Shown here: positions 23,858-44,351 of the stretch, one piece after another
Numbering within the stretch: the stretch's first letter is position 1
Layout of the letters: each line of letters starts with the position of its first letter
Assembly (NCBI GenBank): GCA_947632395.1
Contig: CANRPA010000005.1
Span: 1-44,351, forward strand
Length of the DNA: 44,351 nucleotides
Source of the DNA: an uncultured Bacilli bacterium
GTDB lineage: Bacteria; Bacillota_I; Bacilli_A; RF39; UBA660
Direction: 5' to 3'
Program-made: the position numbers and the translations under genes
Notes under the pieces: model-generated
The model's database searches: none
Told to the model about the DNA's origin: nothing
The model's input: only the letters and a program-made list of their open reading frames with translations

Positions 23858-23881
23858 TAGATTGTGAAAGGAGTGATATGC

Positions 23882-25231: not shown

Positions 25232-25259
25232 AAATGTAATTTAACTTAAAAAGCACGAT

Positions 25260-25463
25260 ATGTTTGAGAAAGAAAATATTTCTAAACAATTAACAAAATA
25301 AGAAATTGTGATAGTAAACGAATGCAAACAATGTTTGCAAATTAGTCTTAAAAATAACAATAATATAATAAATACTGAAGCATGTTCAACTTGTAAGACT
25401 GGTAAGAAATACAAAAATTGTTGTGGAAAAGTGGTAATTTTTATAAGTTTTTGCGAAGTATAG
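25260..25463 (+). pseudogene. Remnant of a small SEC-C zinc-motif protein
   Basis: Not in the ORF track. One frame reads MFEKENISKQLTK, stop, then EIVIVNECKQCLQ ... ACSTCKTGKKYKNCCGK followed by a short tail and stop. The last part is a SEC-C motif (CxxC...KKYKxCCGK), close to the end of the SecA encoded 4 kb upstream. An internal TAA and the lack of a good start after it suggest a broken gene. It might instead be a 51-residue protein from GTG at 25308, but no ribosome binding site is seen there. Confidence 0.55.
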
Positions 25464-25905
25464 GTCTTTGAAAAAATCATAAAAAAATCAAAAAAATTGA
25501 AAAATGTACACAAAAAGATTCAATTTATTCACAAAAATATCAAAAAAACGTAGAATCAGTGGTTTTCAATGGAACATTTTATGATAAAAGTGTAAATCAG
25601 CATTTGTGCTGATTTTTATTTCACTTAAATTAGAATATTTATAGTCAAATACATTTAAAATATATTTTTCCATATTTTTAAATGTTTTAAGCATTTTTTT
25701 CATATTCATACATTTAGAAACTTTGTTATTTTTACCATTAATATCTACGATTTTTAAATAATTTTTATAAAAAATACATTTTTTAAATTTAATAATAACA
25801 TTTTGTTGACAATTTCACCCTTTTGTTAATTTTTTGTTTAAAATTTAAAATATTTTCTTTTTTATTATAATGTGTTATAATTAATATGTTACAATAAAAT
25901 ATGAT
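25464..25905. other. AT-rich gap without a convincing gene
   Basis: Between the SEC-C remnant and essC there is one good terminator (25594-25620) and long A/T runs. A 47-codon open frame on - (25566-25709) spans the terminator and has no ribosome binding site. A GTTGACA similar to the abiE-flanking hairpins occurs near 25805. Two TATAAT sequences (25866 and 25876) precede essC without a clear -35. It looks like decayed sequence. Confidence 0.6.
25594..25620 (+). terminator. Intrinsic terminator upstream of the type VII locus
   Basis: AAATCAGCA / TGCTGATTT pair perfectly around TTTG and are followed by TTATTT. It would stop transcripts from the TraG-like gene and isolate the secretion locus. 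Confidence 0.8.
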
Positions 25906-25923
25906 ATGTTAGGGGTTGTACTT

Positions 25924-28900
25924 ATGAAATTATATGTAATGAATGGGAAACAAATAAATAAATATGCCTTACCATTTCAAAGTGAAGAATTTTATTCATT
26001 CGATTGCTTTTTTGATGGCTTTAGTGAAAAATGTACTATAACTTTACATAATATTAATAATATTTGGTACCTAAAAAGTAATGGTATGGTAAACGTTATA
26101 AACAATAATCAAAGTGTTTTAGATAAAATTCAATTAGTAGAGTATGGAATTTATTATATAAAAGTTCTTGGAATGAATAAATATGTTGGAATATATGCAA
26201 TGCCAAGTCAAGAAAAAAATTTATTAGAGTTTTCATACAAAAATATAAATAATATTACTATAGGTAATGGTTCAAATTGTAATATAAATTATAATAACCA
26301 ATTCATTTCAGGCGTGTATGCTACTATACAATTTAAAGCAAATGAGTGGATTATAAGTGGGAATGTAAACTCAAAAACTGGAATATTTGTTAATGATAAA
26401 AATGTCAAATCTGCAAAATTGAAGTATGGTGATGTTATTTTCATTTTTGGATTAAAAATAATTTGGATGCCAACTTTTTTAAAAATTAATAACCCTAACA
26501 ATATGGTTAAAATTACAGGGCTCAGTATATATATGAGTGAAGATATAGTTGATAATGTTAATGTACAAAGCGTAACTGATGAAGAATCTGCAATTGAATT
26601 ATATAAAGAGGATGATTATTTTTATCACATTCCTAGAATTAAAGAAACTATTGAAGAAGAAGAAATTTCAATAGACCCACCTCCAACTTCACAAATTCAA
26701 GAAGAAATGCCATTTTGGCTTACTTTAGGAACAAGTTTAACCCTTGTTGCATCATCTATAGTTATGATTTTTAATATATATAATAATGTTGTAGCAGGAC
26801 GAAATGTTTTAATGTTAATTCCACAAATAATAATGTTATTTGCAATGGTAGTTGGAAGTTTTGTTATGCCTAACTTACTAAAAAGATATCAAAAGAAAAG
26901 GGCTAAAAAAAGAGAAAAGTTAAGACAAACCAGATATAAAGAATATTTGGAAACAAAAAAACAAGAAATTGAAAAAATTTTAAGACATCAAAATGAAGTT
27001 TTACTTCAAAATAATTATAATGATATTAAATGTATAGAAGCTATAAGATCTAATAACCGTATTTTGTGGAGTAGAGAAATTTTTGATGATGATTTTTTAA
27101 ATATTAGATTGGGATTAGGAAATTTTCCCGCAAGTTTACATATTAATGCCCCAGAGGAACATTTTACTTTAGATAAGGATAATTTGTTTCAAGCAGTTTA
27201 TGATGTTGTTGATGCTTCAAAAATTTTAAAAAATGTTCCAATAACTTATTCCTTTCTAGAAAATAATATAAGTTCATTTATATTTAATAGTACTCAAAAA
27301 AATAATTATATAAACGATATAATGTTAAAATTGTTAACATTTCATAGTGGTACAGATTTAAAGATAGTTATTTTTACTAATAAAAATAGAGAAAATTTTT
27401 GGAATTACTTGAAAATTCTACCACATTGTTGGAATGATGAAAAAAGTGTGAGATTTTTTGCAACGGATTCTTCTGAAATTAATGAGGTATCAGCGGTTTT
27501 AGATGCAGAATTTAAACAAAGAAAGGAAATGTTCAGCAGTAATTCAGGTGAGTCAGAAAATATTGATAAGAACAAATGCTACAAAAATTTTATTCCATAT
27601 TATCTAATAATAACTGATGATTATCAAAATGCTAAAAATAGTCAAATAATATTGGATATTTTAAAAACTAAACAAAATTATGGATTTTCTTTATTAACTA
27701 TAGCAGATTCAATGAAGTCAATACCAAATAAATGTGAAAAATTTATTCAAATTGGTGAGAAAGATGGGTGCATATTAAATAAAGAATTAAATTCTAAATC
27801 ACAGCAAGAATTTTTAATTGAAAAATTACACACTATAGATATGGAAGAAATTTGCATGAAATTAGCTAATATTCCTCTTATGCCTAAAGATGGTCTTAAA
27901 GAGTTTCCAACATCTTTGCCTTTTTTAGAAATGTATAATGTGTCAAAGATAGAACAATTAAATATTTTAAATAGATGGCAAACAAATAATCCGGTTACAT
28001 CTTTATCAACTATTGTCGGTGTACATAAAGATATGGAATTATTTAAACTAGATTTGCATGAAAAACATCATGGACCACATGGCCTTGTTGCAGGTATGAC
28101 AGGATCAGGTAAATCAGAATTTATAATAACATATATTTTATCTATGGCTGTTAATTATCATCCATATGAAGTTCAGTTTGTTCTTATAGATTATAAAGGT
28201 GGTGGACTTGCTGGAGCTTTTGAAAATAAAGAAACAAATATTAGAATTCCACATTTAATAGGTACGATAACAAATTTGGATACTAGTGAAATGAATAGAA
28301 CGCTAGTATCTATAGATAGTGAATTAAAAAGAAGACAAAAGATTTTTAATGAAACAAAAGATTTGTTAGGTGAAAGTACTATTGATATATATAAATATCA
28401 AAGGTTATATCGTGAAGGAAGAGTAAAAAAACCAATGGCTCATTTGTTTATAATATGTGATGAATTTGCTGAATTAAAAAGCCAACAACCTGATTTTATG
28501 AATCAATTGGTTTCTACTGCAAGAATTGGTAGATCATTGGGTGTTCATTTAATATTGGCAACACAAAAACCTAGTGGCGTTGTAAATGATCAAATTTGGA
28601 GTAATTCTAAATTTAAGGTATGTTTAAAGGTTCAGGATAGAAGTGACAGTATGGAAATGTTGAAGAGACCTGAAGCTGCAAGTATAAAAGAGGCTGGAAG
28701 ATTTTATTTACAAGTAGGTTATGATGATTATTTTGATATTGGTCAGTCAGCATGGTGTGGAGCTAAATATGTTCCTGCCAATAAAATTATTAAAAAAATT
28801 GATGATTCTATTAGTTTTGTAAATAACACAGGATATACTATAAAATCAATAAATGATGCTGTAGTTAAAGAGGTATCTGCAGATTTAGGAGATCAATTAA

Positions 28901-30561
28901 CAAATATAGTAAAGCATATTTGTAATTTATCTGAAAAATACAATATTAAAACAGAAAAATTATGGTTAGATAAAATACCAGAGATTATTTACGTTAATAA
29001 ATTAAAAGAAAAATATAATTATAAAGCAAAACCATATTGCATTACTCCAATTATAGGTGAATATGATAGCCCTAGTACTCAATCACAAGGCCTTTTAAAT
29101 TTAGATTTGACATTTGGTGGTAATACTGTAATATATGGTCAAAGCGGAAGTGGTAAAGAAAATTTACTTTCAACAATAATATGGTCAACATTTATTGAGC
29201 ATACAACAGATGAAGTAAATATTTATGTAATAGATTGTGGTGCTGAAACACTTAAAATGTTTAGTAAAATTCCTCATGTTGGAGAAGTTGTTGATATAGG
29301 TGATTCGGACAAAATTTATGAAATTTTTAATTTAGCCTTTCAAGAAGTAGAAACTAGAAAAGAGCTTTTTTCTGATTATGCTGGAAATTATGTCAATTAT
29401 TGTCAAAATAGTGGTAATAAACTTCCTTTAATTATAATAATTATAAATAACTATGATAGCTTTATTGAATCGTATTCAAAATTATCTGAAGATGTACAAT
29501 CAATATATCGTGAATGTAGTAAATATGGTATAAAATTTATAATATCAACTGTTAACCCTTCAACTATACGTAGTAAGATGCTTCAAAATTTTGAAAATAA
29601 AATTTCTTTACAATTAGGTAGTGATGATGCTTATAGAAATTTATTTGGTGCTCCAAGAGGACTATTACCTTCTAAAGTCTTTGGAAGAGGAATTGTTCTT
29701 AAAGATAATAACTTTTATGAATTTCAAACTGCATATTTTACAAATCCAAATCAAATGAGTAATGTTTTAAGAACAGTATCTCAAAAATTAAACTCATATT
29801 ATACTAAAAAGGCAAAAAAAATATTTATAATACCTGAAAAGATTGGACTAAATTCAATAATTAAGGAATCAAAAGGATTATCTAAAATAGCATTAGGTTA
29901 TAATATTGAAAAGAAAGAAATTGAAACATATAATTTCATATCAAACAAAATAAATTTAATTTTGTCAGAAGAAATGAGTGAAAAAATAGATTTTATATAT
30001 GCATTAGTAAGACAATTTGCTATGAATGAAAAAACGAATATTATTATTCTTGATTTTGTCAATGCTTTTGAAAAAGAGATTTCTAACACTGTAAAATTTA
30101 ATAATAATTTTGATTCTATTTTTAATTCGATATATTCTAATTTAAAAAATGATAAAACAAGTAAAGTTAAAAACATGTATGTATTTATAGGGCCTGGTGC
30201 TATCAAAAACGTAGTAAGTGAAAATACTTATGAAATTATCAAAAAAATATTTACAAATGTAAATTCATTAGAAAACAATTTCTTTGTATTTGCAGATGAC
30301 TATGATAATATTAAAAATTTAAAATTAGAAGATTGGTTCCAATCTGGAGTCAACAATTCTAATGGTATATGGTTAGGTGAAGGTATTGCTAATCAAATGA
30401 TGATTAACGTTTCTGATTTATCTTTAGATGATAGAAAGAGAAGTTTCCCATATATGGGTTATACTATAGTAAATGGTAAAAGCAAATGTATAAAATGTGT
30501 ATTAGATGAAGAAATAAGTAATAATGAAGAAAAGGAGGCTATAGTATTAGATGAAAAATAA
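25924..30561 (+). CDS. essC: Type VII secretion motor EssC/YukBA
   Basis: 1545 residues. An N-terminal FHA-like region (about 105-185) is followed by two membrane helices (about 264-318) and three FtsK/SpoIIIE ATPase modules. Module 1 has a full Walker A, GMTGSGKS with K730, and Walker B FIICDE (D846, E847). Module 2 has GQSGSGKE (K1078): the usual Thr/Ser after Lys is Glu, and its Walker B is weak (IIIIINNYDS). Module 3 (about 1340-1500) shows no P-loop. Only the first ATPase site therefore looks fully active, as in other EssC proteins, where modules 2 and 3 bind substrates. ATG at 25924, eight bases after AGGGG, is preferred over the track start at 25906. Its end overlaps esaB by 11 bases. 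Confidence 0.95.
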   Translation: MKLYVMNGKQINKYALPFQSEEFYSFDCFFDGFSEKCTITLHNINNIWYLKSNGMVNVINNNQSVLDKIQLVEYGIYYIKVLGMNKYVGIYAMPSQEKNLLEFSYKNINNITIGNGSNCNINYNNQFISGVYATIQFKANEWIISGNVNSKTGIFVNDKNVKSAKLKYGDVIFIFGLKIIWMPTFLKINNPNNMVKITGLSIYMSEDIVDNVNVQSVTDEESAIELYKEDDYFYHIPRIKETIEEEEISIDPPPTSQIQEEMPFWLTLGTSLTLVASSIVMIFNIYNNVVAGRNVLMLIPQIIMLFAMVVGSFVMPNLLKRYQKKRAKKREKLRQTRYKEYLETKKQEIEKILRHQNEVLLQNNYNDIKCIEAIRSNNRILWSREIFDDDFLNIRLGLGNFPASLHINAPEEHFTLDKDNLFQAVYDVVDASKILKNVPITYSFLENNISSFIFNSTQKNNYINDIMLKLLTFHSGTDLKIVIFTNKNRENFWNYLKILPHCWNDEKSVRFFATDSSEINEVSAVLDAEFKQRKEMFSSNSGESENIDKNKCYKNFIPYYLIITDDYQNAKNSQIILDILKTKQNYGFSLLTIADSMKSIPNKCEKFIQIGEKDGCILNKELNSKSQQEFLIEKLHTIDMEEICMKLANIPLMPKDGLKEFPTSLPFLEMYNVSKIEQLNILNRWQTNNPVTSLSTIVGVHKDMELFKLDLHEKHHGPHGLVAGMTGSGKSEFIITYILSMAVNYHPYEVQFVLIDYKGGGLAGAFENKETNIRIPHLIGTITNLDTSEMNRTLVSIDSELKRRQKIFNETKDLLGESTIDIYKYQRLYREGRVKKPMAHLFIICDEFAELKSQQPDFMNQLVSTARIGRSLGVHLILATQKPSGVVNDQIWSNSKFKVCLKVQDRSDSMEMLKRPEAASIKEAGRFYLQVGYDDYFDIGQSAWCGAKYVPANKIIKKIDDSISFVNNTGYTIKSINDAVVKEVSADLGDQLTNIVKHICNLSEKYNIKTEKLWLDKIPEIIYVNKLKEKYNYKAKPYCITPIIGEYDSPSTQSQGLLNLDLTFGGNTVIYGQSGSGKENLLSTIIWSTFIEHTTDEVNIYVIDCGAETLKMFSKIPHVGEVVDIGDSDKIYEIFNLAFQEVETRKELFSDYAGNYVNYCQNSGNKLPLIIIIINNYDSFIESYSKLSEDVQSIYRECSKYGIKFIISTVNPSTIRSKMLQNFENKISLQLGSDDAYRNLFGAPRGLLPSKVFGRGIVLKDNNFYEFQTAYFTNPNQMSNVLRTVSQKLNSYYTKKAKKIFIIPEKIGLNSIIKESKGLSKIALGYNIEKKEIETYNFISNKINLILSEEMSEKIDFIYALVRQFAMNEKTNIIILDFVNAFEKEISNTVKFNNNFDSIFNSIYSNLKNDKTSKVKNMYVFIGPGAIKNVVSENTYEIIKKIFTNVNSLENNFFVFADDYDNIKNLKLEDWFQSGVNNSNGIWLGEGIANQMMINVSDLSLDDRKRSFPYMGYTIVNGKSKCIKCVLDEEISNNEEKEAIVLDEK

Positions 30562-30805
30562 AGTATTAGTTGAGATAATAGTACCAGTACTTGATGAAAG
30601 ATATAGCCTTTTTTTACCAATAAATAAACGTATAGGTAAAATAATTACACTCATTAATAAAGCAATAACAGAATTATCAGGAAATTCATATGTTTTAAAC
30701 AATAGTGCATCATTATACAACAGAATAACAGGAGTTAGATATCAGGCTAACATGTTGATTAGTGAAACAGATATAAGAAATGGTGCTGTTTTGGTTCTTG
30801 ATTAA
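30551..30805 (+). CDS. esaB: EsaB/YukD ubiquitin-like type VII protein
   Basis: 84 residues with the ubiquitin-like pattern of YukD: KVLVEIIVPVLDERYSLFLPINKRIGKII and the C-terminal ISETDIRNGAVLVLD. EsaB is a small cytoplasmic regulator or accessory factor of Firmicutes type VII systems. It overlaps the end of essC by 11 bases, with AAGGAGG inside essC, so the two are coupled. Confidence 0.9.
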   Translation: MKNKVLVEIIVPVLDERYSLFLPINKRIGKIITLINKAITELSGNSYVLNNSASLYNRITGVRYQANMLISETDIRNGAVLVLD

Positions 30806-30824
30806 TAGATAGGGGGGGAAAACT

Positions 30825-32498
30825 ATGATTAAAAATTTAAAAATATTTACTAATAAAAAAAATCACAAATTTTCATTGAAAAAAGGTGTTACCTTTGCAG
30901 CAATGACTGTTTTAGTTACACTACCACTTGCTGCATGTTCAAAACAATCAAATTTAAATACAAATTTTAACGATAATGATAATGTTTATAGTGTAACTGA
31001 TGAATACAATAATTCAAATTCAAAAGATGATGGATTTAATGATTTAAATTCAGAAGATGTTGGATTTGAAGAAAATTTTGAACAAAACTATATTAATTCC
31101 TTTTTGAATTCAACTATAGTATTTGATAATGCTGATGTTGAAAATCTCAGTAATAAAATCAGTTCAATTAATGTAGATTTTAAATATTCAAATTTTTATA
31201 ATCTAGATGCTGCAATGAGCAAATATAATAATTTAAAAGAGATTAATGTAACAAATAACAATATTATAAAAATAAATTCAAATGATTTATTTGATATTGT
31301 TAAAAAAAATAATGATGAATATATGAAATCCTATAAGGGGAGTAAATATACACCATTATCGGATTCATTATTAAAACAAATTTGTAATTACTTGACTTTG
31401 AGTATTAATAGTGAAGTAGATAGTCATACAAATTATTCTGATTTGAATGAAAAAATTCAAAAATTAAAAATATTTAATTATAATGATTTTGCTTATGCAT
31501 TTTATGATAATAACATAGATATATTAGGAGTTAGTGTTAATTCTATACAGACAATAAATGAAGAAAATTCATTAGAAAGATTAATAACTCATGAAGGCAA
31601 ACATTTTATGCAATCAATAAAAAATGATTTTGATGGATCGTATACAATGCGTTATGGAATAAGTTATAAGTGGGATGATTTAGCTGTTAATAGTTTATAT
31701 AATGAATGGTTTTTTGAGGCAAGTGCAGAACAATTAACTATTAATCAAATAGGAAATGAAGGAAAATGTTTGTATGAAAGCGGCATAAATTTTTTAGAAA
31801 TGATAAAAACATCAACTCTTTTGTCTGAGAAAAATGGAATAAATGATTTAGAAAAGATTTCTCTACAGGGTGATTTAAATAATTTATTTGATTATTTTGG
31901 TTGCAACACAGAAAAAGAAAAAATGGAAGTTTTAAAACTTATGTTTGCTTACAATATAATTATAACTACAGATCCACAATCTTCTGTTAATGAATTTTAT
32001 GACAATTATAATAAGGAAAGTGGACATAAACTTAGTTACATAGATAAATTGGATTATAGTGATTATTTATTAAGCCCAATTTCAGAAGTGCTTTCAAAAA
32101 AATTTTACAAAAATTTGATTTATTCAATTAGAAATAAAGAAATAACTATTGAAGAATTATTTTCAATAATAAGTGTATTTGAAATGCAACTTAATAAACA
32201 GTGTAGATATTATGAAAGTTCAAAGACTAAATATTTAGAAAGTTTATATACAACATATAATGATATACAATCTGAATTGTTTGAATGTATATCATCAAAA
32301 TTAAAAATTTCAAAAGAAGATATACAAGAACTATATAATGCTTATTATAAAAATTTTAATACTCCAAATATAAAGTTTATGTTAGAAGATAAAAATTCAT
32401 TCTATAGTGAATTGTATAATAAAAATAAGTATTTTAGAATGGATAGCATTAATGCATATTATAATAAATATTTATCAGGAAATAACAAGAAATATTAG
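30825..32498 (+). CDS. Lipoprotein with HExxH metalloprotease motif
   Basis: 557 residues. A basic N terminus and hydrophobic stretch end in the lipobox LPLAAC, with Cys38 as the lipidated residue, followed by an Asn/Asp/Ser-rich linker. In the middle is ITHEGKHFMQS (His256, Glu257, His260), a zinc-protease motif, and about 38 residues on EWFFEASAEQL offers Glu298/Glu302 as third ligand, as in gluzincins. It should sit on the outer face of the membrane. It lies between esaB and the WXG100-like genes with 19 bases after esaB, so it belongs to the secretion locus, perhaps trimming secreted substrates or opening the wall. No known family is recognised. RBS GGGGGGG. Confidence 0.7.
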   Translation: MIKNLKIFTNKKNHKFSLKKGVTFAAMTVLVTLPLAACSKQSNLNTNFNDNDNVYSVTDEYNNSNSKDDGFNDLNSEDVGFEENFEQNYINSFLNSTIVFDNADVENLSNKISSINVDFKYSNFYNLDAAMSKYNNLKEINVTNNNIIKINSNDLFDIVKKNNDEYMKSYKGSKYTPLSDSLLKQICNYLTLSINSEVDSHTNYSDLNEKIQKLKIFNYNDFAYAFYDNNIDILGVSVNSIQTINEENSLERLITHEGKHFMQSIKNDFDGSYTMRYGISYKWDDLAVNSLYNEWFFEASAEQLTINQIGNEGKCLYESGINFLEMIKTSTLLSEKNGINDLEKISLQGDLNNLFDYFGCNTEKEKMEVLKLMFAYNIIITTDPQSSVNEFYDNYNKESGHKLSYIDKLDYSDYLLSPISEVLSKKFYKNLIYSIRNKEITIEELFSIISVFEMQLNKQCRYYESSKTKYLESLYTTYNDIQSELFECISSKLKISKEDIQELYNAYYKNFNTPNIKFMLEDKNSFYSELYNKNKYFRMDSINAYYNKYLSGNNKKY

Positions 32499-32536
32499 AA
32501 ATAGCAAAAAAAAGTGTAAAGTTATTTAAAAAAATA

Positions 32537-32565
32537 TTGCAAAATTTTAACATGTGTGATATAGT
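32537..32565 (+). promoter_or_regulatory. Promoter of the WXG100-like gene cluster
   Basis: TTGCAA (32537-32542) and TATAGT (32560-32565) with a 17-base spacer. It lies between the lipoprotein gene and the first small helical protein, so the substrate genes can be expressed apart from the motor. Confidence 0.65.
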
Positions 32566-32606
32566 AAAGACAAGGTAGGTTTGTAGATAATAAGGAGTTG
32601 ATTGTA

Positions 32607-32900
32607 TTGACAAATGTTGTAGGAATAAATGAGCAAAAAATTGATAAATTAATCAATGAAATTTATTTCTACTCAAATAGAATTAAAATGGTTTTAGATC
32701 AGGCAGATTCTATAGTAGAAAATACAAATTCTTTTTATGATTGTGAAAGTGCAAAAATGTTTAGAAGTGCATTTGAGAAATATAAAAGGAACTTTAATAT
32801 TATCAACAAAAATATCTTAAGTTATTCTGACGATTTATCATCAGTTAAAAATTTTTATCGAAACAAAGCACAGATGTTTTCGGTAAATTTAAAAAAATAA
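32607..32900 (+). CDS. WXG100-like small helical protein
   Basis: 97 residues if TTG at 32607 is the start; the track's TTG at 32598 abuts the AAGGAG site, while 32607 has nine-base spacing. Two long predicted helices flank SFYDCESAKMFRSAFEKY, in the place where WXG100 proteins have WxGxSA.xF; here Trp-x-Gly is replaced by Tyr-Asp-Cys. The size and place suggest an EsxA-related substrate or chaperone of the type VII system. Family is inferred from pattern and context. Confidence 0.65.
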   Translation: MTNVVGINEQKIDKLINEIYFYSNRIKMVLDQADSIVENTNSFYDCESAKMFRSAFEKYKRNFNIINKNILSYSDDLSSVKNFYRNKAQMFSVNLKK

Positions 32901-32919
32901 ATGTTAGGTGGTGAAAAAA

Positions 32920-33282
32920 ATGGGACTTTTCGGAGGAATAGGAGGAACAACTACAGCAATGAGTAAAGGTGCTTCTGATACAGGAATATCTGATTTAACT
33001 GTAGGTATATCTATATCAGGTATGGAGGCTTACATTCAACAATTAAAAGCAGATTTATTAGATACTTCAATCGAAAAAATTAATGATACATCAAATATGT
33101 TGAATGCAATAAATTCTGGTTGGCAAGGAGCTTCAAGGGATAGATTTATTGAAGATTTTAATGCTGCAAGAGAAGCAATTGCAAACGATTTAAGAGCAGA
33201 GTATAATGATTTGGCTGCAAGATTACAAGAGTTACAAGATAATTATTTTAGACAGGATGATGAATTATATGAAAAATTATAA
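32920..33282 (+). CDS. WXG100 protein, likely type VII substrate
   Basis: 120 residues. A Gly-rich N terminus (MGLFGGIGGTTTAMSKGAS) precedes a helical hairpin with the WxG turn SGWQGASRDRF (W68, G70). The C terminus has the export motif YxxxD (Y109-D113 in NYFRQDDELY). This is the only protein of the cluster with both hallmarks intact, so it is the best EsxA candidate. ATG at 32920 is eight bases after AGGTGG; the track begins at GTG 32908 within that site. Confidence 0.88.
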   Translation: MGLFGGIGGTTTAMSKGASDTGISDLTVGISISGMEAYIQQLKADLLDTSIEKINDTSNMLNAINSGWQGASRDRFIEDFNAAREAIANDLRAEYNDLAARLQELQDNYFRQDDELYEKL

Positions 33283-33296
33283 GGAGGTAAGAAATT

Positions 33297-33794
33297 ATGG
33301 CAAATTGGAATGTTGAAAGTTCAAAATCAGGTTGGGCTACGAATTCGATAGTTAATAATTTTAAATCACAAAGAGAGTCTACTAGAAGTGCTGGAATTGG
33401 TTCGGATATGTGGAGCCAGGTTGTTAAAGGTATTTCTAATTTCTTTAGTGGTGGTGGCTATAGTGTTGTTGGTATAAATGCAACTAAAGTTGAAGAAATG
33501 AGAAATGCTATAAGAGAGTATGTTAGAGCTATCCAAGCACATTTAGATGGTATAGATCCAACAACTAATGCTAATGGTGCTTTTAAAGGTGAAGAAATAC
33601 AAAATGCTGTCAGAAGTTACGTAGAAAGATTGAAACAATATTCTAAAGACTTAACATCACAATTACTCGCATTTAGCGATAAGTTAAAAGATGTTGCAGA
33701 TGCATGGGAAGCATATAATAAAAGTATGGCAGAGAATGTTACTTCTACTTCTTCTTCATTTGGTAATAATGGTGCTTATACTGAACAGAAGTAG
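33297..33794 (+). CDS. Type VII-associated helical protein
   Basis: 165 residues, longer than WXG100 proteins. Residues 1-55 are Ser/Gly-rich with SKSGWATN and FFSGGG; residues 58-150 are two long helices joined by NANGAFKGEEIQNAVRSYVE, which resembles a WXG-type turn with Phe in place of Trp. A Ser/Thr-rich tail follows. AAGGAGG lies before ATG, 14 bases after the WXG100 gene, so the pair may be co-secreted partners. Not assigned to a named family. Confidence 0.65.
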   Translation: MANWNVESSKSGWATNSIVNNFKSQRESTRSAGIGSDMWSQVVKGISNFFSGGGYSVVGINATKVEEMRNAIREYVRAIQAHLDGIDPTTNANGAFKGEEIQNAVRSYVERLKQYSKDLTSQLLAFSDKLKDVADAWEAYNKSMAENVTSTSSSFGNNGAYTEQK

Positions 33795-33806
33795 TTGGTT
33801 GCGTTT

Positions 33807-34091
33807 ATGTCGGAATTAGATTTATTAAGCAGTTATAAAAATAAGTATATTCAATTATATAATGACATTAATAGAATAATAACTAATTTGAAATCTGCTA
33901 TTGATATGTTAGATTCTGCTTACAATAATTTTGAAAATTGCTATGTCGTGGATGATTATCCATACAATTCAGATGCAATAAAAAAAATTAAGCAAGAATT
34001 GGTAAATGAAAAAAATGATTTACAAAATAAAGTACTTTATTCAATAAATCTAAAAATTTCAGATTACAATAAAAGAATATCCAATTTATAA
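33807..34091 (+). CDS. YwqH-like (DUF5082-like) type VII accessory protein
   Basis: 94 residues from ATG at 33807; the track start (33795) is a TTG directly after the previous stop. An N-terminal helix SELDLLSSYKNKYIQLYNDINRIITNL, a short middle, and a second helix resemble the small coiled-coil DUF5082/YwqH proteins encoded beside LXG toxins. No toxin is visible next to it. The ribosome binding site is weak, suggesting coupling to the upstream gene. Assignment is tentative. Confidence 0.55.
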   Translation: MSELDLLSSYKNKYIQLYNDINRIITNLKSAIDMLDSAYNNFENCYVVDDYPYNSDAIKKIKQELVNEKNDLQNKVLYSINLKISDYNKRISNL

Positions 34092-34144
34092 ATCAATAAT
34101 TGATTTTATGCAGTTCACATATATATAAATAATAATCTGCAAGA

Positions 34145-34174
34145 ACTAGATTATGAATAATCTAGTTTTATTTT
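34145..34174 (+). terminator. Terminator within the WXG cluster
   Basis: ACTAGATTA / TAATCTAGT pair perfectly around TGAA and are followed by TTTATTTT. It splits the cluster into two transcripts or works as an attenuator, since no strong promoter is seen between it and the next start. Confidence 0.8.
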
Positions 34175-34187
34175 AGGAGGTAACAAA

Positions 34188-34478
34188 TTGATAAAAATTG
34201 ATACAAAAAAAGTCAATGAAAGTGGACATGATTTGATGTTGTTATCTGATGAATTAGGGCAATTAATAGATGAACTTTTTTTAAGGTTAACATGTATGAA
34301 TACTAAGACATTTGAATGGGTAGGTAAAGCAGCGGATGAATATATTAGAAATTTAAAAAATGAAAAAACTGAATATGTTATATTTAAAAATGAGTTACAT
34401 GATTTTGGAAAATATTTAACAGTTGTTGCAAATACATATGAATCAAAAATTGAAAGTTGTAGGTATGATAAAAAATGA
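34188..34478 (+). CDS. WXG100-like protein
   Basis: 96 residues starting with TTG, fixed by AGGAGG seven bases upstream. The helical hairpin contains TFEWVGKAADEYIRNL, with W44-V-G46 as the WxG turn. A C-terminal helix ends YESKIESCRYDKK; no clear YxxxD. A second, distinct WXG100 member in the locus, overlapping the next gene by four bases (ATGA). Confidence 0.8.
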   Translation: MIKIDTKKVNESGHDLMLLSDELGQLIDELFLRLTCMNTKTFEWVGKAADEYIRNLKNEKTEYVIFKNELHDFGKYLTVVANTYESKIESCRYDKK

Positions 34479-34789
34479 CAAAATTACTTTTAAATACTAC
34501 TTTTTTAAAAAAAAATGTTATTGATAAGTTAGATTTATCTATTGATAGTTTACGTCAATGCTATTCTACATCATGTCGTCTTAATGTTCCAGATGATTTT
34601 GAATATCAAAATATGTTAAAATCACTAACTTATGATATTAATAAAATCAAGAATGAGATTTCTAATTTTAAGGATTCAATGGATAATAATGTTATTACAT
34701 ATGATAGGACTGAAGATAGTTTTGTTTCTACTGCTAATAATTTAGGAAAAAATGTTATAAAAAAAAGAACAACATTAATGTTAAAATAG
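34475..34789 (+). CDS. Small helical type VII-associated protein
   Basis: 104 residues, overlapping the WXG100-like gene by ATGA. It has a Lys-rich N terminus, a middle segment with two Cys (RQCYSTSCRL) and a long helix (MLKSLTYDINKIKNEISNFKDSMD). No family recognised. The tight coupling suggests it partners the preceding WXG100-like protein, as small chaperones of type VII substrates do. Confidence 0.6.
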   Translation: MTKLLLNTTFLKKNVIDKLDLSIDSLRQCYSTSCRLNVPDDFEYQNMLKSLTYDINKIKNEISNFKDSMDNNVITYDRTEDSFVSTANNLGKNVIKKRTTLMLK

Positions 34790-34808: not shown

Positions 34809-35687
34809 ATGTTTACTAAAAAATTTCTTCCAATTGGTACAATATGTAAAATTAATAAAGTCGATTCTTTGGTTATGATTATAGGTTATTTCATGTACAA
34901 ATATAATGATGGTATTGAAAAATATGATTATTCTGTATGTTTATATCCTGAAGGATTATATATGTCATCAAATTTATTTGGTATTAATCATGATGAAATT
35001 ATAGAAATAGTTAAAATTGGCTATATTAATGATAATTTTGAAAGTTTAAATAGTGAATTACATAAATATGAAATGTCTGTGCCTGTTAAGAGTGTTGAAA
35101 ATAAAATAGATATTTTATTTGATGAAAATGGTGTAGTTATAGGTGTAGGTAACGAAAAAATAGATTCATCTAATATTTCTAAAACTGAAAATAATTTGAA
35201 ATTTAATTCAAATGGAGTGGTTTTAGACGATGGAAATAGTACAAAACAAGGATCAAACTTTAAAACTAACTTAAAATTTGATTCAAATGGAGTTATTTTA
35301 GACGATGGAAATAGTACAAAACAAGGATCAAACTTTAAAACTAACCTAAAATTTGATTCAAATGGAGTTATTTTAGACGATGGAAATAGTACAAAACAAG
35401 AATCAAGTCCTAAAACTAATTTAAAATTTAATTCAAATGGAGTAGTTTTAGATGATGAAAATAGTACAAAACAAGAATCAAGTCCTAAAACTAATTTAAA
35501 ATTTAATTCAAATGGAGTAGTTTTAGATGATGAAAATAGTACAAAACAAGAATCAAGTCCTAAAACTAATTTGAAATTTAATTCAAGTGGAGTAGTTTTA
35601 GATGATGAAAATAGCAATAAACAAGAATCAAACTCTAAAACTAACTTAAAATTCGATTCAAATGGATTTGTTGTATCAGAAAATTAG
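34809..35687 (+). CDS. DUF4176-like protein with 25-residue tandem repeats
   Basis: 292 residues. The first 90 resemble DUF4176 proteins of type VII loci: FLPIGTICKINKV, LVMIIGYFMYKY, then YDYSVCLYPEGLYMSSNLFGINHDEI and IGYI. The rest (from about residue 129) is six full and one partial copy of a 25-residue repeat with core LKFxSNGVVLDD and a spacer NSTKQESSPKT. A related single motif LFDENGVVIGVG lies just before the array. The repeats are nearly identical at the DNA level, so copy number may vary. There is no signal peptide or membrane segment. RBS AGGTGGG. Confidence 0.72.
   Translation: MFTKKFLPIGTICKINKVDSLVMIIGYFMYKYNDGIEKYDYSVCLYPEGLYMSSNLFGINHDEIIEIVKIGYINDNFESLNSELHKYEMSVPVKSVENKIDILFDENGVVIGVGNEKIDSSNISKTENNLKFNSNGVVLDDGNSTKQGSNFKTNLKFDSNGVILDDGNSTKQGSNFKTNLKFDSNGVILDDGNSTKQESSPKTNLKFNSNGVVLDDENSTKQESSPKTNLKFNSNGVVLDDENSTKQESSPKTNLKFNSSGVVLDDENSNKQESNSKTNLKFDSNGFVVSEN
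35193..35687 (+). repeat. 75-base tandem repeat array, six full copies and one partial
   Basis: Units start at 35193, 35268, 35343, 35418, 35493, 35568 and 35643 (partial). The period is exactly 75 bases, so changes in copy number keep the frame. Adjacent units differ at few positions; units four and five are the closest to identical. Each unit encodes one 25-residue repeat of the DUF4176-like protein. Confidence 0.93.
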
Positions 35688-35803
35688 ATTATACTAAATA
35701 TTAAATAATCTAAATTTTAGACATATTAAATTTTTTGAAACTAATTTAAAAAACATAAAATTAAGTAATCTTATGAAATAAAAATATGAAGGAAATATTT
35801 TAG

Positions 35804-37990: not shown

Positions 37991-38067
37991 GGCGAGTATG
38001 GTGAAGGGGTTAACACGGCGGATTGTGGTTCCGTTATGCTAGGGTTCGAATCCCTATACTCGCCCCA
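37991..38067 (+). tRNA. tRNA-His (anticodon GTG)
   Basis: All four arms fold. The acceptor GCGAGTA pairs with TACTCGC. The extra G at position -1, the hallmark of tRNA-His, is encoded (37991) and faces C73; CCA is encoded. The anticodon stem GCGGA/TCCGT carries the loop TTGTGGT, anticodon GTG. The T arm is TAGGG TTCGAAT CCCTA. Its last bases are the left end of the 3.7-kb repeat described below. Confidence 0.97.
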
Positions 38068-39100
38068 TGTTGATTTAAAACTCGTATATTGGCGAGTTTT
38101 TTTATAACGATAAAAGTTAAATAAATAATAAAAAACTTCTTGCTAAACAATACATATTAAAATTTGTTTGATATAATATATGTAGTTAAACCATAATAAA
38201 ATGAGGTGTTATTGTGAATATTGAAAATATACAAAATGTTTTGTTTGAATGTTATTCAAAAGATTTATGTTATCCTAAAGTTCAAAACGAATGGAAGATG
38301 AAAATAAATGCTTTGGAATGTGTGCAATAACATCTCTAATTATTAATGATTATTTTGGTGGAGAATTTGTAAAATTCATGTGGATGGAATTAGTCATTAT
38401 TTTAATTTAGTAGAAGATAAAATTATAGATTTAACTTCAATTCAATTTAATCATGAAATTGATTATAAAGAATATCAAATTATAGATAGACAAAAAATAT
38501 TAACTGCTGATACAAAGACTAGATATCACATACTAAAGTCAAAATTAATTAAAGCATTATTAAAACAGGTAGATGAAAAAGTATATTCTTGTAAATCTTG
38601 TGATAAGTTAGTTGATAAATTTCCTAATGATGAAACAGTATTTCTTGGAAAAGATCAGACAATAGTATTAGTTGGAGAAGCACCTGCAAATAATGGTTGG
38701 AGAAAAAGTCATAAATTATGGTGTGATATAAATGGAAAAGTATTACCTAGTGGAGTTGTATTACAAAAGTTATTTGATATTATTGACAGAAATATTTTTG
38801 AAACTACATTTTTAGAATCAGTTAAGTGCTATCCACTTGAAAGAAAAAATTTAAAAACATGTTCTAGTAATTGTAAAGATATAATGTTAGAACAATTAAA
38901 AATATTAAATCCTAAATTAATCATTACTTTAGGAGAATTTCCAACTAGAAATTTACTTAATTTTAAATTTAATAAGTTTGCCGATGTAGTTGGCAATATA
39001 TATGAAGTTAATGGTTATAAAATATTACCTATTTATCATCCTAGTCCTATATCTCCAAAGAGTTATAAATGTAATGCTCCTATATTTGAAAATTTAAGAG
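38062..39100 (+). repeat. Direct duplication, copy 1 (tRNA-linked)
   Basis: Starting at GCCCCA, the last six bases of tRNA-His, this segment matches 41750 onward at a constant offset of 3,688 bases. The block 38062-38484 differs from copy 2 at only two positions. 38485-38730 (246 bases) is absent from copy 2. From 38731 the match resumes at an offset of 3,442 with about ten differences in 340 bases, fading after 39070. The segment includes a terminator, a promoter and the YunG-UDG pseudogene. Confidence 0.95.
38077..38103 (+). terminator. Terminator of tRNA-His
   Basis: AAAACTCG / CGAGTTTT with an eight-base loop, then T. A copy with one loop change lies at 41765-41791 as part of the duplication. 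Confidence 0.85.
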
Positions 39101-39120
39101 ATTTATTGATAGATATATAG
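38214..39120 (+). pseudogene. YunG-like domain fused to an Fe-S uracil-DNA glycosylase domain, two frameshifts
   Basis: From GTG at 38214 (GAGGTG five bases upstream) the frame reads MNIENIQNVLFECYSKDLCYP, the start of a YunG-like protein. It then shifts near 38295 into ENKCFGMCAITSLIINDYFGGEF and again near 38372 into HVDGISHYFNLVEDKIIDLTSIQFN. Each shift is repaired by one extra A in an A run. The continuing frame (ORF 38380-39120) carries CKSC, the GEAPA motif, NGKVLPSGVVLQKLF, a second Cys cluster (CYPLERKNLKTCSSNC) and HPSP, as in Fe-S family 4/5 uracil-DNA glycosylases. The glycosylase part is complete and may be made from GTG 38380, but no ribosome binding site is seen there. Confidence 0.75.
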
Positions 39121-39160: not shown

Positions 39161-39201
39161 GGCTAGTACAGACTTTAAAAAAGTTTTGTATTGGCTTTTT
39201 T
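39161..39201 (+). terminator. Terminator or attenuator before the kinase gene
   Basis: GGCTAGTACA pairs with TGTATTGGCT over ten bases with three or four G-U pairs, extended inward by ACTT/AAGT, and is followed by TTTTT. A TATAAT lies just upstream (39140-39145), so a short RNA could start and stop here before the kinase gene. It could equally be the terminator of the glycosylase gene. The leader is too short for a T-box or a known riboswitch. Confidence 0.55.
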
Positions 39202-39217
39202 AGATGCAGGTGATTTA

Positions 39218-39736
39218 ATGAAAAAAATTATATTTTTGAGTGGAATTCATGGTGTTGGTAAGGGATATATTGCAAAGCAAATAAAAAAGGAAATTAATAT
39301 ATCTATATATGAGGCAAGTGATTTAATTCGTTTAAATGGAGTATCAACTGATGAAAAGAAAAAAGTTAATAATGTGAAACTCAATCAAGAGTTATTAATA
39401 AATTCAATAAATAATTTAACGTGTAATGAAACTTTTATATTAAATGGACATACTTGCTTACTAACTTCAGATAATAAAATTGAATCTATAGATATAAGTT
39501 ATTTTAAAAAGATTCATATTATAGGGATCATATCTGTTTACGATGATATTAATATTATAGAAGATAGATTGTATGAGAGGGACAACATTCATTTTGATAA
39601 AATTACATTAAATAATTTACAAAATGCTGAAATTGAAAATACTAAGCAATTATCAGAAAAATTGCGTATTCCGTTATTATTATTTAAAAATGGCAACGAT
39701 ATTAAAAATTTAATTAACTTTATTACCAATTTGTAG
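39218..39736 (+). CDS. P-loop nucleotide kinase-like protein
   Basis: 172 residues. Walker A is SGIHGVGKGYIAKQI at the N terminus; EASDLIRLNG and FILNGHTCLL follow as in small AAA-type nucleotide kinases; IIEDRLYERDN resembles a lid with two Arg. It probably phosphorylates a nucleotide, nucleoside or RNA/DNA end; the substrate cannot be read. The track start at 39191 lies in the terminator stem; ATG at 39218 after AGGTGA is better. It ends ten bases before the PIN-GNAT gene, with GGAGG between, so the two form an operon. Confidence 0.75.
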   Translation: MKKIIFLSGIHGVGKGYIAKQIKKEINISIYEASDLIRLNGVSTDEKKKVNNVKLNQELLINSINNLTCNETFILNGHTCLLTSDNKIESIDISYFKKIHIIGIISVYDDINIIEDRLYERDNIHFDKITLNNLQNAEIENTKQLSEKLRIPLLLFKNGNDIKNLINFITNL

Positions 39737-41291: not shown

Positions 41292-41666
41292 ATGTGTAAA
41301 ATTTTAATTTCAATAAAACCTCAATATGTAAATGAGATTTTATCTGGTAGGAAAAAATATGAATATAGGAAAGTAAAAGCTAAAAAGGATAATGTAGATA
41401 AAATGATAGTTTATGCGACAGCCCCCATTATGAAAGTGGTAGCAGAAATAGAAATATTAAATATTTTAGAAGATGCTCCTAATTTAGTTTGGGAGCATAC
41501 AAAAAAGTATTCTGGAATTAGTAAATCTTTCTATGATAAATATTATGAAAATCGTGACATTGCGATTGCTTATCAATTGGGAAAAATAAAAAAATATGAT
41601 GAACCTAAAGAATTAAGTGAGTTAGGAATTTTATATAGCCCACAATCATTTGTTTATATTGATTAA
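41292..41666 (+). CDS. ASCH-domain protein
   Basis: 124 residues. MCKILISIKPQYVNEILSGRKKYEYRKVK is the classic ASCH opening (IxPxYxxxILxGxKxxExR), followed by VDKMIVYATAPIMKVVAEIEI. ASCH is a PUA-like fold that binds RNA or modified nucleotides; one ASCH protein is a cytidine acetyl-base amidohydrolase. It belongs to the tRNA-linked cassette with the kinase and PIN-GNAT genes. RBS AGGAGGG. Cellular role unknown. Confidence 0.88.
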   Translation: MCKILISIKPQYVNEILSGRKKYEYRKVKAKKDNVDKMIVYATAPIMKVVAEIEILNILEDAPNLVWEHTKKYSGISKSFYDKYYENRDIAIAYQLGKIKKYDEPKELSELGILYSPQSFVYID

Positions 41667-41696
41667 AATTTAAAATAATGTTATACTTAACTCATC

Positions 41697-41720
41697 AAGT
41701 ATTTATGTAAATACTTTTAC
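41697..41720 (+). terminator. Terminator after the ASCH gene
   Basis: AAGTATTTA / TAAATACTT palindrome with a small loop, followed by TTTAC. Moderately convincing; it lies just before copy 2 of the repeat. Confidence 0.5.
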
Positions 41721-41749
41721 TACTTTGGTGCAAAACTCATATTCTTATT

Positions 41750-42540
41750 GCCCCATGTTGATTTAAAACTCGTATACTGGCGAGTTTTTTTATAACGATA
41801 AAAGTTAAATAAATAATAAAAAACTTCTTGCTAAACAATACATATTAAAATTTGTTTGATATAATATATGTAGTTAAACCATAATAAAATGAGGTGTTAT
41901 TGTGAATATTGAAAATATACAAAATGTTTTGTTTGAATGTTATTCAAAAGATTTATGTTATCCTAAAGTTCAAAACGAATGGAAGATGAAAATAAATGCT
42001 TTGGAATGTGTGCAATAACATCTCTAATTATTAATGATTATTTTGGTGGAGAATTTGTAAAATTCATGTGGATGGAATTAGTCATTATTTTAATTTAGTA
42101 GAAGATAAAATTATAGATTTAACTTCAATTCAATTTAATCATGAAATTGATTATAAAGACTATCAAATTATAAATGGAAAAGTATTACCTAGTGGAGTTG
42201 TATTACAAAAACTATTTGATATTATTGACAGAAATATTTTTGAAACTACATTTTTAGAATCAGTTAAGTGTTATCCACTTGAAAGAAAAAATTTAAAAAC
42301 TTGTTCTAGTAATTGTAAAGATATAATGTTAGAACAACTAAAAATATTAAATCCAAAATTAATTATTACTTTAGGAGAATTTCCAACTAGAAATTTACTT
42401 AATTTTAAATTTAATAAGTTTGCCGATGTAGTTGGTAATATATATGAAGTTAATGGCTATAAAATATTACCTATTTATCATCCTAGTCCTATATCTCCAA
42501 AAAGTTATAAAGGTAATATACCTATATTTAAAAAATTAAA
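41750..42540 (+). repeat. Direct duplication, copy 2
   Basis: Begins at GCCCCA, identical to the end of tRNA-His although no tRNA precedes it, and continues with the tRNA terminator, promoter and YunG-UDG gene. The left block (to 42172) has two differences from copy 1. A 246-base segment is missing at 42172/42173, at a TATA microhomology. The right block has about ten differences in 340 bases. Confidence 0.95.
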
Positions 42541-42598
42541 AGAGTTTGATAAAGAAATTATTAAATTGTTTGATAAAGAAATTATTAAATTCTCTTGA
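41902..42598 (+). pseudogene. Second YunG-UDG copy, frameshifted and internally deleted
   Basis: Carries the same two frameshifts in the YunG part as copy 1. It lacks 82 codons that in copy 1 encode the CKSC cysteines and the GEAPA catalytic motif, while keeping the frame (ORF from 42068). It still has the second Cys cluster and HPSP. Without the first motif it cannot be a working glycosylase. The C terminus differs from copy 1: it ends in a perfect 24-base tandem duplication (42545-42592) encoding FDKEIIKL/F twice. Its stop codon overlaps the next promoter. Confidence 0.8.
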
Positions 42599-42650: not shown

Positions 42651-42803
42651 ATGAAAAAAGATGAAAATCTATTTGGCATTTCTAAAGAAGAATTTAGGAG
42701 ACAATGTAGTATAAAAAATCTTGATGGTGATTTGACGCAATCTCCAATTGTTAAAGGTGAAACAGGGTTGGAACCATGTTTAAGAGGCGCAAAAAAATAT
42801 TAG
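42651..42803 (+). CDS. Small protein of unknown function
   Basis: 50 residues from ATG at 42651, nine bases after GGAGG and behind a good promoter. The track ORF starts at 42546, inside the pseudogene. The sequence has a charged helix (ISKEEFRRQCSIKNL). I do not recognise it. Its end overlaps another small ORF in a different frame, and a one-base shift near 42776 would join them into one protein of about 90 residues. Confidence 0.55.
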   Translation: MKKDENLFGISKEEFRRQCSIKNLDGDLTQSPIVKGETGLEPCLRGAKKY

Positions 42804-42931
42804 AAGATCCTAAAATGCTAAAAATGGTAAGAAGTTTTTTAACTAATGGTGATTTAGTTAAAGATAAAGTCAATGAATCATCAAACTTTCCTACTGCACA
42901 AAAATCAATTACAAAATACTATAAGAAATAA
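42776..42931 (+). CDS. Small ORF, perhaps the frameshifted second half of the previous gene
   Basis: Missed by the track (51 residues). It starts MFKRRKKILEDPKMLKMV and ends SITKYYKK; basic and helical. It overlaps the preceding ORF by 28 bases. Either a separate gene with a poor binding site or the second half of a broken gene. Family unknown. Confidence 0.4.
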   Translation: MFKRRKKILEDPKMLKMVRSFLTNGDLVKDKVNESSNFPTAQKSITKYYKK

Positions 42932-43001: not shown

Positions 43002-43046
43002 AAAAAAACAGTCATCAATAGTGAGAATTATGACTGTCTTTTTATT
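43002..43046. terminator. Bidirectional terminator
   Basis: ACAGTCAT / ATGACTGT with a 14-base loop, preceded by an A run and followed by T runs. It serves the small ORFs on + and the FemABX-type gene on -, whose stop codon lies in the loop. Confidence 0.85.
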
Positions 43047-44233
43047 TTTTTTATATACATTTTTAGTAGTAAAGGATAAAATAATTTTATGGGATAATAA
43101 ATTTTAGATATTTTTAAATCATATTCACCTGCAAATTCTAAAACTTGACCATTGAATTTTTCTTTAAAAATTGTTAAGTTATCATTAAGATTTCCATCTA
43201 CGCCACCTAGATTGCAGTAATGACAACCATTTTTTATAGAGAATTTTAATATTTCAAATACTACACCTGTGGAAACTCTTAATTTAGTTAAATTTAAACT
43301 ATTTCCTGCATATAGGTATTCACTTGTTCTAATTCCTTTTTTATTTTTTGGTAAAATTATTAAAGATGCAGATAATATCAAAGTATCATTATTTTCCTTT
43401 AATAGATTTTTTGCTTCTAATATTTCTTTTTCATCAGAATTATTTGACCTTAAAAATTCAATATATTTATTTAAATCAATTTTTCCAAAAACTAAATATG
43501 CTTGATCTTTGTAATTTTTCATTATTTTTCTAAAATAATCTTCATCTCTTAAATTTATACCTTGCTTTATTTCAGTTTGCTTTAGAAGATATACTAAGTC
43601 TGTAACTCTATCAATATCATTTGTTATTTCAAAAGTTATCCCTCTTTTTTCATGAAATGAACCTACATAATATTTAAATTTACTATTATATGTTTCTAAA
43701 AATTCCTCTTCAGTTAATATTTTAGAATTAATATCACAAAGAGGTGCAATTATATTATATTGAGGTTGTAGATTTTTTCCTATTTCCTTATTAATTCCGG
43801 TGGATCTATATCCTAAAGAAAGTAAATTTTTATTTTTTACATCATAATCTTTTGAATAATTATTAGCGATTTCTTTTTCCTTAATACTAAATTGTCTTAT
43901 ACAAAAATTAGGATCTATTTTAATTATATAGGCCTTATTTTCTTTAGCTAATTTTTTAATATTTATAGTCATTTCTTTTAAATCTTCAAAATTTGTAAAA
44001 TCTATCAAATATCCCCTAGGAACATAAAACATTTTTAAATTTTTAAATATTTTTTTTACTAATATTAAACATACCCCAATTAATTCTTGATTTTTATATA
44101 GTCCGCAATGAAAAGATTGCCAATTATTTTTTACATTTGCCCAATTATATTCTTGCATAAAACTTGCCATTGAATAATTTTCTATAAATTTATCATATTC
44201 TTCTTTTTCTAGATTTTTAGTAAATGTATACAT
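43028..44233 (-). CDS. FemABX-family peptidoglycan branching aminoacyltransferase
   Basis: 401 residues. These enzymes add amino acids from aminoacyl-tRNA to the lipid II side chain in the cytoplasm. Typical features are the N-terminal FMQEYNWANVKNNW, FYVPRGYLIDF, the KIDPNF motif, FKYYVGSFHEKRGITFE, and the C-terminal GCHYCNLGGVDG with LTIFKEKFNGQVLEFAGEYDL. These show two GNAT-like subdomains. The coiled-coil arm region (DRVTDLVYLLKQTE ... ) is short. RBS GGGGTGAT before ATG. Which amino acid it adds cannot be told. Separate from the tRNA island by orientation and terminators. Confidence 0.9.
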   Translation of the reverse strand: MYTFTKNLEKEEYDKFIENYSMASFMQEYNWANVKNNWQSFHCGLYKNQELIGVCLILVKKIFKNLKMFYVPRGYLIDFTNFEDLKEMTINIKKLAKENKAYIIKIDPNFCIRQFSIKEKEIANNYSKDYDVKNKNLLSLGYRSTGINKEIGKNLQPQYNIIAPLCDINSKILTEEEFLETYNSKFKYYVGSFHEKRGITFEITNDIDRVTDLVYLLKQTEIKQGINLRDEDYFRKIMKNYKDQAYLVFGKIDLNKYIEFLRSNNSDEKEILEAKNLLKENNDTLILSASLIILPKNKKGIRTSEYLYAGNSLNLTKLRVSTGVVFEILKFSIKNGCHYCNLGGVDGNLNDNLTIFKEKFNGQVLEFAGEYDLKISKIYYPIKLFYPLLLKMYIKKIKRQS

Positions 44234-44267
44234 TTAAATAATCACCCCTATTCTTTCCATTGATTTT

Positions 44268-44297
44268 ATTATAACATACGGCAGACGCTGTCCGCAA
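44268..44297 (-). promoter_or_regulatory. Promoter of the FemABX-type gene with a GC-rich near-palindrome
   Basis: On -, TTGCGG (44297-44292) and TATAAT (44273-44268) are separated by 18 bases. The spacer holds a GC-rich imperfect palindrome, GGACAGCGTCTGCC on -, which stands out in this AT-rich DNA and may be an operator. Confidence 0.65.
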
Positions 44298-44319
44298 CCT
44301 AATTTCTAATTTAGACCCC

Positions 44320-44351
44320 AAAAAAAGCAAACCTCACTTGAAATAGTTTGC
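44320..44351 (-). terminator. Terminator of a - strand gene beyond the window
   Basis: On -, GCAAAC and GTTTGC pair across a 13-base loop and run into seven T. The gene it ends lies to the right of the window. Confidence 0.65.

What the first reader, a model, noticed from the sequence alone, without database searches (positions are those of the whole stretch)
41750..42598. Copy 2 is a mosaic: near-identical left block, right block diverged only at silent sites
The left 423 bases differ at two positions. The right 340 bases differ at about ten, and every one I checked is synonymous in the glycosylase frame. The break coincides with the 246-base in-frame gap. The right part thus seems to come from a different, once functional glycosylase gene kept under purifying selection, joined by recombination, rather than from simple deletion of copy 1.
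Basis: seen in the sequence. Interest (0 to 1): 0.55.

Follow-up and report, generated by a model that had tools for sequence, protein, structure and literature searches.

The report
Hybrid glycosylase gene in tandem islands
Two neighbouring copies of a DNA-repair-like gene next to a histidine tRNA gene are the remains of two stacked mobile defence islands, and their halves have different ancestries because homologous recombination swapped the front part; the mosaic is real, but the copy that was rebuilt is more likely the first than the second.

Summary
In detail: copy 2 (41750-42598) matches copy 1 (38062-39120) with 2 differences in the left 419 bp (none in 38090-38471), a 246-bp in-frame gap, then exactly 10 differences in 343 bp, all synonymous. 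Relatives show different histories for the halves: informative sites are 14:0:0 for copy 1+copy 2 on the left, but 0:8:1 for copy 1+L061 versus copy 2+L060 (G005) on the right. So the right part of copy 2 is not a degraded copy of copy 1.

Copy 2 begins exactly at the tRNA-His 3' end (GCCCCAT), right after an ~85-bp sequence found in 12 related contigs as the right end of tRNA-His islands. Full members carry a large serine recombinase, YunG-UDG and a variable, mostly defence-like cargo; the window's cargo matches PADLOC PDC-M11A/B. Copy 1 belongs to such an island, and copy 2 is an older remnant behind it.

Copy 1 lacks the island's usual left end and instead carries the same tRNA flank as copy 2. 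The best model is therefore a crossover in the glycosylase gene that made copy 1 the hybrid; copy 2 is an L060-like gene with a deletion. Which copy is recombinant is favoured, not proven.

The parts
37992..38067 (+). tRNA-His (GTG) with encoded CCA; insertion site of the island family
   Evidence: ARAGORN; the same gene precedes islands in 14 of the named relative loci
38062..38210 (+). Flank T of copy 1: tRNA 3' end GCCCCAT plus a simple hairpin terminator and the stretch up to the gene, instead of the family's usual left end
   Evidence: no left-end sequence in the own genome
38211..39120 (+). Copy 1: YunG-UDG gene; the YunG part is broken by two frameshifts, the UDG part is open (ORF 38380-39120, 246 aa)
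   Evidence: frameshifts relative to intact L039/L060
38442..38471 (+). Inferred switch point in copy 1: last state private to copies 1 and 2 at 38441, first difference between the copies at 38472
38481..38726 (+). 246-bp segment missing from copy 2; includes the CKSC cysteines and the GEAPANNGWR active-site motif
39191..39736 (+). AAA_17/kinase-like protein, first cargo gene
   Evidence: Pfam AAA_17 2e-12; homologue at the same place in L077
39747..41237 (+). 496-aa protein, PADLOC candidate defence component PDC-M11A (PIN-like N-terminus and GNAT-like middle by eye)
   Evidence: PADLOC 4.7e-143; no Pfam hit
41292..41666 (+). ASCH protein, PADLOC PDC-M11B
   Evidence: PADLOC 1.6e-44; Pfam ASCH
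41670..41756 (+). Right end (attR-like) of the island, ending in GCCCCAT
   Evidence: Conserved in 12 named relative loci
41750..42168 (+). Left block of copy 2: flank T plus the same frameshifted YunG start
   Evidence: 2 differences from 38062-38480
42169..42551 (+). Right block of copy 2: UDG C-terminal half, closest to L060/G005
   Evidence: 11/366 differences to L060, 15/366 to copy 1; 2/192 vs 10/192 in the distal half
42552..42598 (+). End of copy 2's frame: homology to UDG relatives lost, tandem 22-bp repeat (TTTGATAAAGAAATTATTAAAT twice)

Best explanation
Copies 1 and 2 are the YunG-UDG genes of two elements of one mobile-island family stacked at tRNA-His. Shown: the island right end at 41670-41756, the shared flank and shared frameshifts, and the different ancestry of left and right halves. 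Inferred: the older arrangement was tRNA-His|T-UDG (L060-like, frameshifted), whose remnant is copy 2. A later island with an L061-like UDG and PDC-M11 cargo inserted at the tRNA 3' end in front of it. A homologous exchange in the UDG gene, between an unoccupied or post-excision chromosome (tRNA|T-UDG) and the occupied one, then replaced the newcomer's left end, recombinase and UDG 5' part by T plus the old UDG 5' part. The switch fell at about 38442-38471. This made copy 1 the hybrid and left a shortened island without its own recombinase. Copy 2 lost 246 bp, with TATA at both ends, before or after this, and is a UDG pseudogene; copy 1's UDG domain is still open.
For: Quartet sites 14:0:0 left, 0:8:1 right. 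Left tree joins copies 1 and 2 (98) and rejects copy 2+L060 (AU 0.003). Middle+right of copy 1 joins L061 (98; AU of alternatives about 0.02). Copy 2's right joins L060 (80). Copy 2 starts exactly after the conserved island right end. The family's left end after tRNA-His (L064, L067, L069, L070, L077, L091, G018) is absent from the window and its genome, while flank T stands on both sides. L077 has the same cargo between UDG and right end. G044 shows the same right end|terminator|shortened UDG layout. UDG genes of relatives recombine in general: PHI p 0.001; left and right trees reject each other, AU below 0.001.
Against: On the right block alone, copies 1+2 as sisters is not rejected (AU 0.16). 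The left-block link to L060 rather than L061 is weak (AU 0.19 and 0.31 for alternatives). The YunG half diverges faster among L060, L061 and copy 1, which inflates part of the contrast. Several loci lack the usual left end (L066, L072-L075, L080, L086), so its absence in copy 1 might be older than the exchange. The occupied and empty parental chromosomes were not found. The window is a MAG contig with a 382-bp exact repeat. FemX beyond copy 2 lies upstream of tRNA-His in relatives, so the region beyond copy 2 is rearranged.
Confidence: 0.6

Rival explanations
1. Copy 2 is the hybrid: a resident L060-like UDG behind the island had its left part overwritten by copy 1 through gene conversion, or was joined to it at the 246-bp gap.
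For: The left blocks are nearly identical, the right block of copy 2 is L060-like, and the gap lies within 10-40 bp of the switch.
Against: Does not explain why copy 1 lacks the island left end and carries flank T; 38472 places the switch before the gap; copy 2 leans to L060 in both halves, weakly on the left.
Confidence: 0.25
2. Plain tandem duplication: both copies descend from one gene by a recent duplication; the right half diverged faster by chance and the 246 bp were deleted.
For: AU test on the right block alone does not reject sister copies (p 0.16); max-chi-square on the pair alone p 0.07.
Against: Zero differences in 382 bp of a broken, unconstrained half against 10 synonymous differences in a constrained half; quartet sites 14:0:0 vs 0:8:1.
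Confidence: 0.08
3. Assembly artefact: strains with and without the island were joined through a shared stretch of UDG, or the repeat was falsely made identical.
For: MAG in 78 contigs; a chimera between an empty-site strain and an island strain would look the same as the in vivo crossover.
Against: If the incoming UDG had G at 38441, as most relatives do, the exact shared stretch at the switch is at most about 30 bp, too short for usual assembly graphs (own knowledge); the two repeats keep a difference at 38089; the right end|flank junction is of a kind found in independent assemblies.
Confidence: 0.07

Closest known systems
Dehalococcoides ssrA genomic islands (PMC3146451)
   Same: Serine-recombinase islands inserted at the 3' end of a tRNA-like gene, stacked in tandem, bounded by short direct repeats of the gene's end, with integrase-less members
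   Different: Target here is tRNA-His, the shared repeat is only 7 bp plus a conserved right end, cargo is defence-like, and a YunG-UDG gene stands between recombinase side and cargo
SCC/ECC cassettes (CcrAB; ECC in PMC6222049)
   Same: Large serine recombinase, att sites at the 3' end of a conserved gene, variable content, remnants with att sites
   Different: Target gene rlmH, two Ccr recombinases, no UDG hallmark; relation of the recombinase here to Ccr not tested
Family 4-like uracil-DNA glycosylases (PDB 4zbx, 1vk2, 1ui0)
   Same: UDG domain aligns over residues 114-280 of L060; family assignment of these structures from own knowledge
   Different: Fused to an N-terminal YunG domain and carried on a mobile island; activity untested
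PADLOC candidate system PDC-M11
   Same: Both components match nearly full length in the cargo
   Different: A candidate system; found here beside a kinase-like gene in a tRNA-His island

Membership tests
tRNA-gene integrative island | Starts at the 3' end of a tRNA gene | tested here: met
   Copy 1 and copy 2 blocks start at GCCCCAT of tRNA-His
tRNA-gene integrative island | Direct repeat of the tRNA end at the far boundary | tested here: met
   GCCCCAT at 41750 within a right end conserved in 12 loci
tRNA-gene integrative island | Own site-specific recombinase | tested here: not met
   None between 38067 and 41756; present in G018, L069, L091. The window element is therefore at best a defective derivative
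tRNA-gene integrative island | Excision and integration activity | not testable with these tools
   No reads or cultures
Uracil-DNA glycosylase superfamily (copy 1) | UDG profile match with GEAP motif, cysteine ligands and HPS motif | tested here: met
   Pfam UDG 1.6e-12; motifs; PDB relatives by the intact L060 protein
Uracil-DNA glycosylase superfamily (copy 2) | Complete active site | tested here: not met
   The 246-bp gap removes CKSC and GEAPANNGWR
YunG-UDG fusion (copies 1 and 2) | Intact YunG domain in frame with UDG | tested here: not met
   Two shared frameshifts relative to L039/L060
PDC-M11 candidate defence system | Both components adjacent | tested here: met
   PDC-M11A 4.7e-143 and PDC-M11B 1.6e-44
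PDC-M11 candidate defence system | Protects against phage | not testable with these tools
   Needs an assay

The most novel reading that the evidence does not exclude
YunG-UDG is the fixed hallmark of a so far unnamed family of serine-recombinase islands at tRNA-His in uncultured gut Bacilli, placed between the recombinase side and an exchangeable defence slot; recombination inside this gene reassorts left halves and defence cargo among islands, and the window is a case caught after such an exchange.
Probability: 0.4. Interest if true: 0.55.

Novelty: new member of a known kind. Interest (0 to 1): 0.35.

Why it matters
It shows by which steps stacked islands can lose their mobility genes yet keep their defence cargo: an exchange through a shared gene. 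It also points to a conserved marker (YunG-UDG) and conserved ends with which such islands can be found in uncultured gut bacteria, and gives a defined slot where candidate defence systems can be collected.

Tried and rejected
A donor within the own genome: only the two copies exist. Viral contigs: no relative found with this query. Only one other genus member (G005) among the 16 genomes searched carries a homologue. A second right end behind copy 2: none found. The right block alone as proof of different ancestry: not significant by AU. The jump in copy 1-L061 identity as proof that copy 1 is the hybrid: partly explained by faster evolution of the YunG half, so given little weight. Literature: no relevant paper found on YunG with UDG, and none naming PDC-M11.

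Full report
Check. Copy 1 (38062-39120) and copy 2 (41750-42598) align as described. The left 419 bp differ at 38089 and 38472 only. A 246-bp in-frame segment (38481-38726) is missing from copy 2. The next 343 bp differ at 10 positions, all synonymous, which chance would give with a probability of about 1e-7 to 6e-6. From the pair alone the clustering is moderate (Fisher 0.008 or 0.0006, longest run p 0.003, max-chi-square p 0.07).

Relatives. The gene is a YunG-UDG fusion (Pfam YunG and UDG), intact in relatives such as G005 = L060 and broken by two shared frameshifts in the YunG part of both copies. A scan gave 34 relatives in uncultured gut Bacilli and their kin. With copies 1 and 2, L060 and L061, informative sites on the left are 14:0:0 for copy 1+copy 2; on the right they are 0 for that pairing, 8 for copy 1+L061 with copy 2+L060, and 1 for the third. 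Three of the 8 sites are adjacent; counted as one event the contrast remains (p about 3e-5). Trees agree: left, copies together (98), copy 2+L060 rejected (AU 0.003); right, copy 2+L060 (80), although copies together is not rejected (0.16). The middle and right part of copy 1 joins L061 (98; alternatives AU 0.02). UDG genes of the relatives show recombination in general (PHI p 0.001; left and right trees reject each other).

Context. Copy 2 starts exactly at the tRNA-His 3' end sequence GCCCCAT, directly after an ~85-bp sequence (41670-41756) that recurs in 12 relative loci at the right end of islands, most of them with tRNA-His in view. Full islands (L069, L091, G018) run: tRNA-His, a conserved left end, a short ORF of about 97-110 aa, a large serine recombinase (Resolvase and Recombinase domains in L069; interrupted by an IS30-like gene in G018, by eye), variable genes, a conserved protein of about 185-205 aa, YunG-UDG, cargo, right end. 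The cargo slot holds different defence-like genes: PDC-M11 in the window and by homology in L077, PDC-S73 in L061, PDC-S06 in L062, a PD-T4-6-like kinase in L063, PDC-M66 in L066, PDC-M68B in L067, HsdR in L073. Right end followed by another left end, that is tandem islands, is seen in L060, L061 and L070 (by eye). In G044 a right end is followed by a terminator and a UDG gene shortened in frame, the same layout as in the window.

Which copy is the hybrid. After tRNA-His the window has not the family's left end but a flank T with a simple terminator, the same T that follows the right end before copy 2; the left end is not found in the own genome. A single crossover in UDG between a chromosome tRNA|T-UDG and one carrying the island yields exactly this: T plus the old UDG 5' part in front of the newcomer's UDG 3' part and cargo, with left end and recombinase lost. 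The switch would lie at 38442-38471, just before the gap, as expected if copy 2's deletion already limited the homology, though the order of events is not known. I therefore favour copy 1 as the hybrid (0.6) over copy 2 (0.25). The evidence is not decisive: other loci also lack the usual left end, and parental arrangements were not found.

Function. Copy 2 lacks the CKSC cysteines and the GEAPANNGWR motif and is very probably a pseudogene as a glycosylase. Copy 1 keeps an open UDG domain related to family 4-like enzymes, but its YunG half is broken; whether it is made or active is unknown. The cargo is a candidate defence system by profile match only. A related but partial serine recombinase lies elsewhere in the genome at a contig end (62% identity over residues 1-154), so mobilisation in trans is possible but untested.

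Verdict. Tandem accretion at tRNA-type genes and serine-recombinase islands are known (PMC3146451, PMC6222049); this is a new member with an unusual hallmark gene.

Noticed in passing
L060-L093 (especially L061, L062, L063, L066, L067, L069, L070, L077, L091): YunG-UDG is a recurrent gene of tRNA-His islands with a large serine recombinase and a variable, mostly defence-like cargo slot before a conserved right end
   Followed up: partly
43028-44351: FemX lies downstream of the tRNA-His islands, while in genus relatives it lies about 6-11 kb upstream of tRNA-His; genes lying between them in G005 are on contigs C10 and C56 here. The contig ends in a sequence repeated at the start of C26
   Followed up: partly
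L040:4753-5337 (G044): A second UDG gene with the YunG domain removed in frame directly behind an island right end
   Followed up: partly
L042 and L046 (G030): YunG-UDG relatives directly behind tmRNA and tRNA-Leu: the family may have other target genes
   Followed up: no
42652-42930: Small ORF behind copy 2 that seems broken by a frameshift in a run of A; no relative found in the loci searched
   Followed up: no
23864-34789: Type VII secretion-like locus (FtsK/EssC-like ATPase, small WXG100-like proteins), by eye
   Followed up: no
35110-35784: 75-bp tandem repeats in and around the end of ORF 34809-35687
   Followed up: no
21606-23053: Gene pair resembling an AbiEi/AbiEii toxin-antitoxin system, by eye
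   Followed up: no
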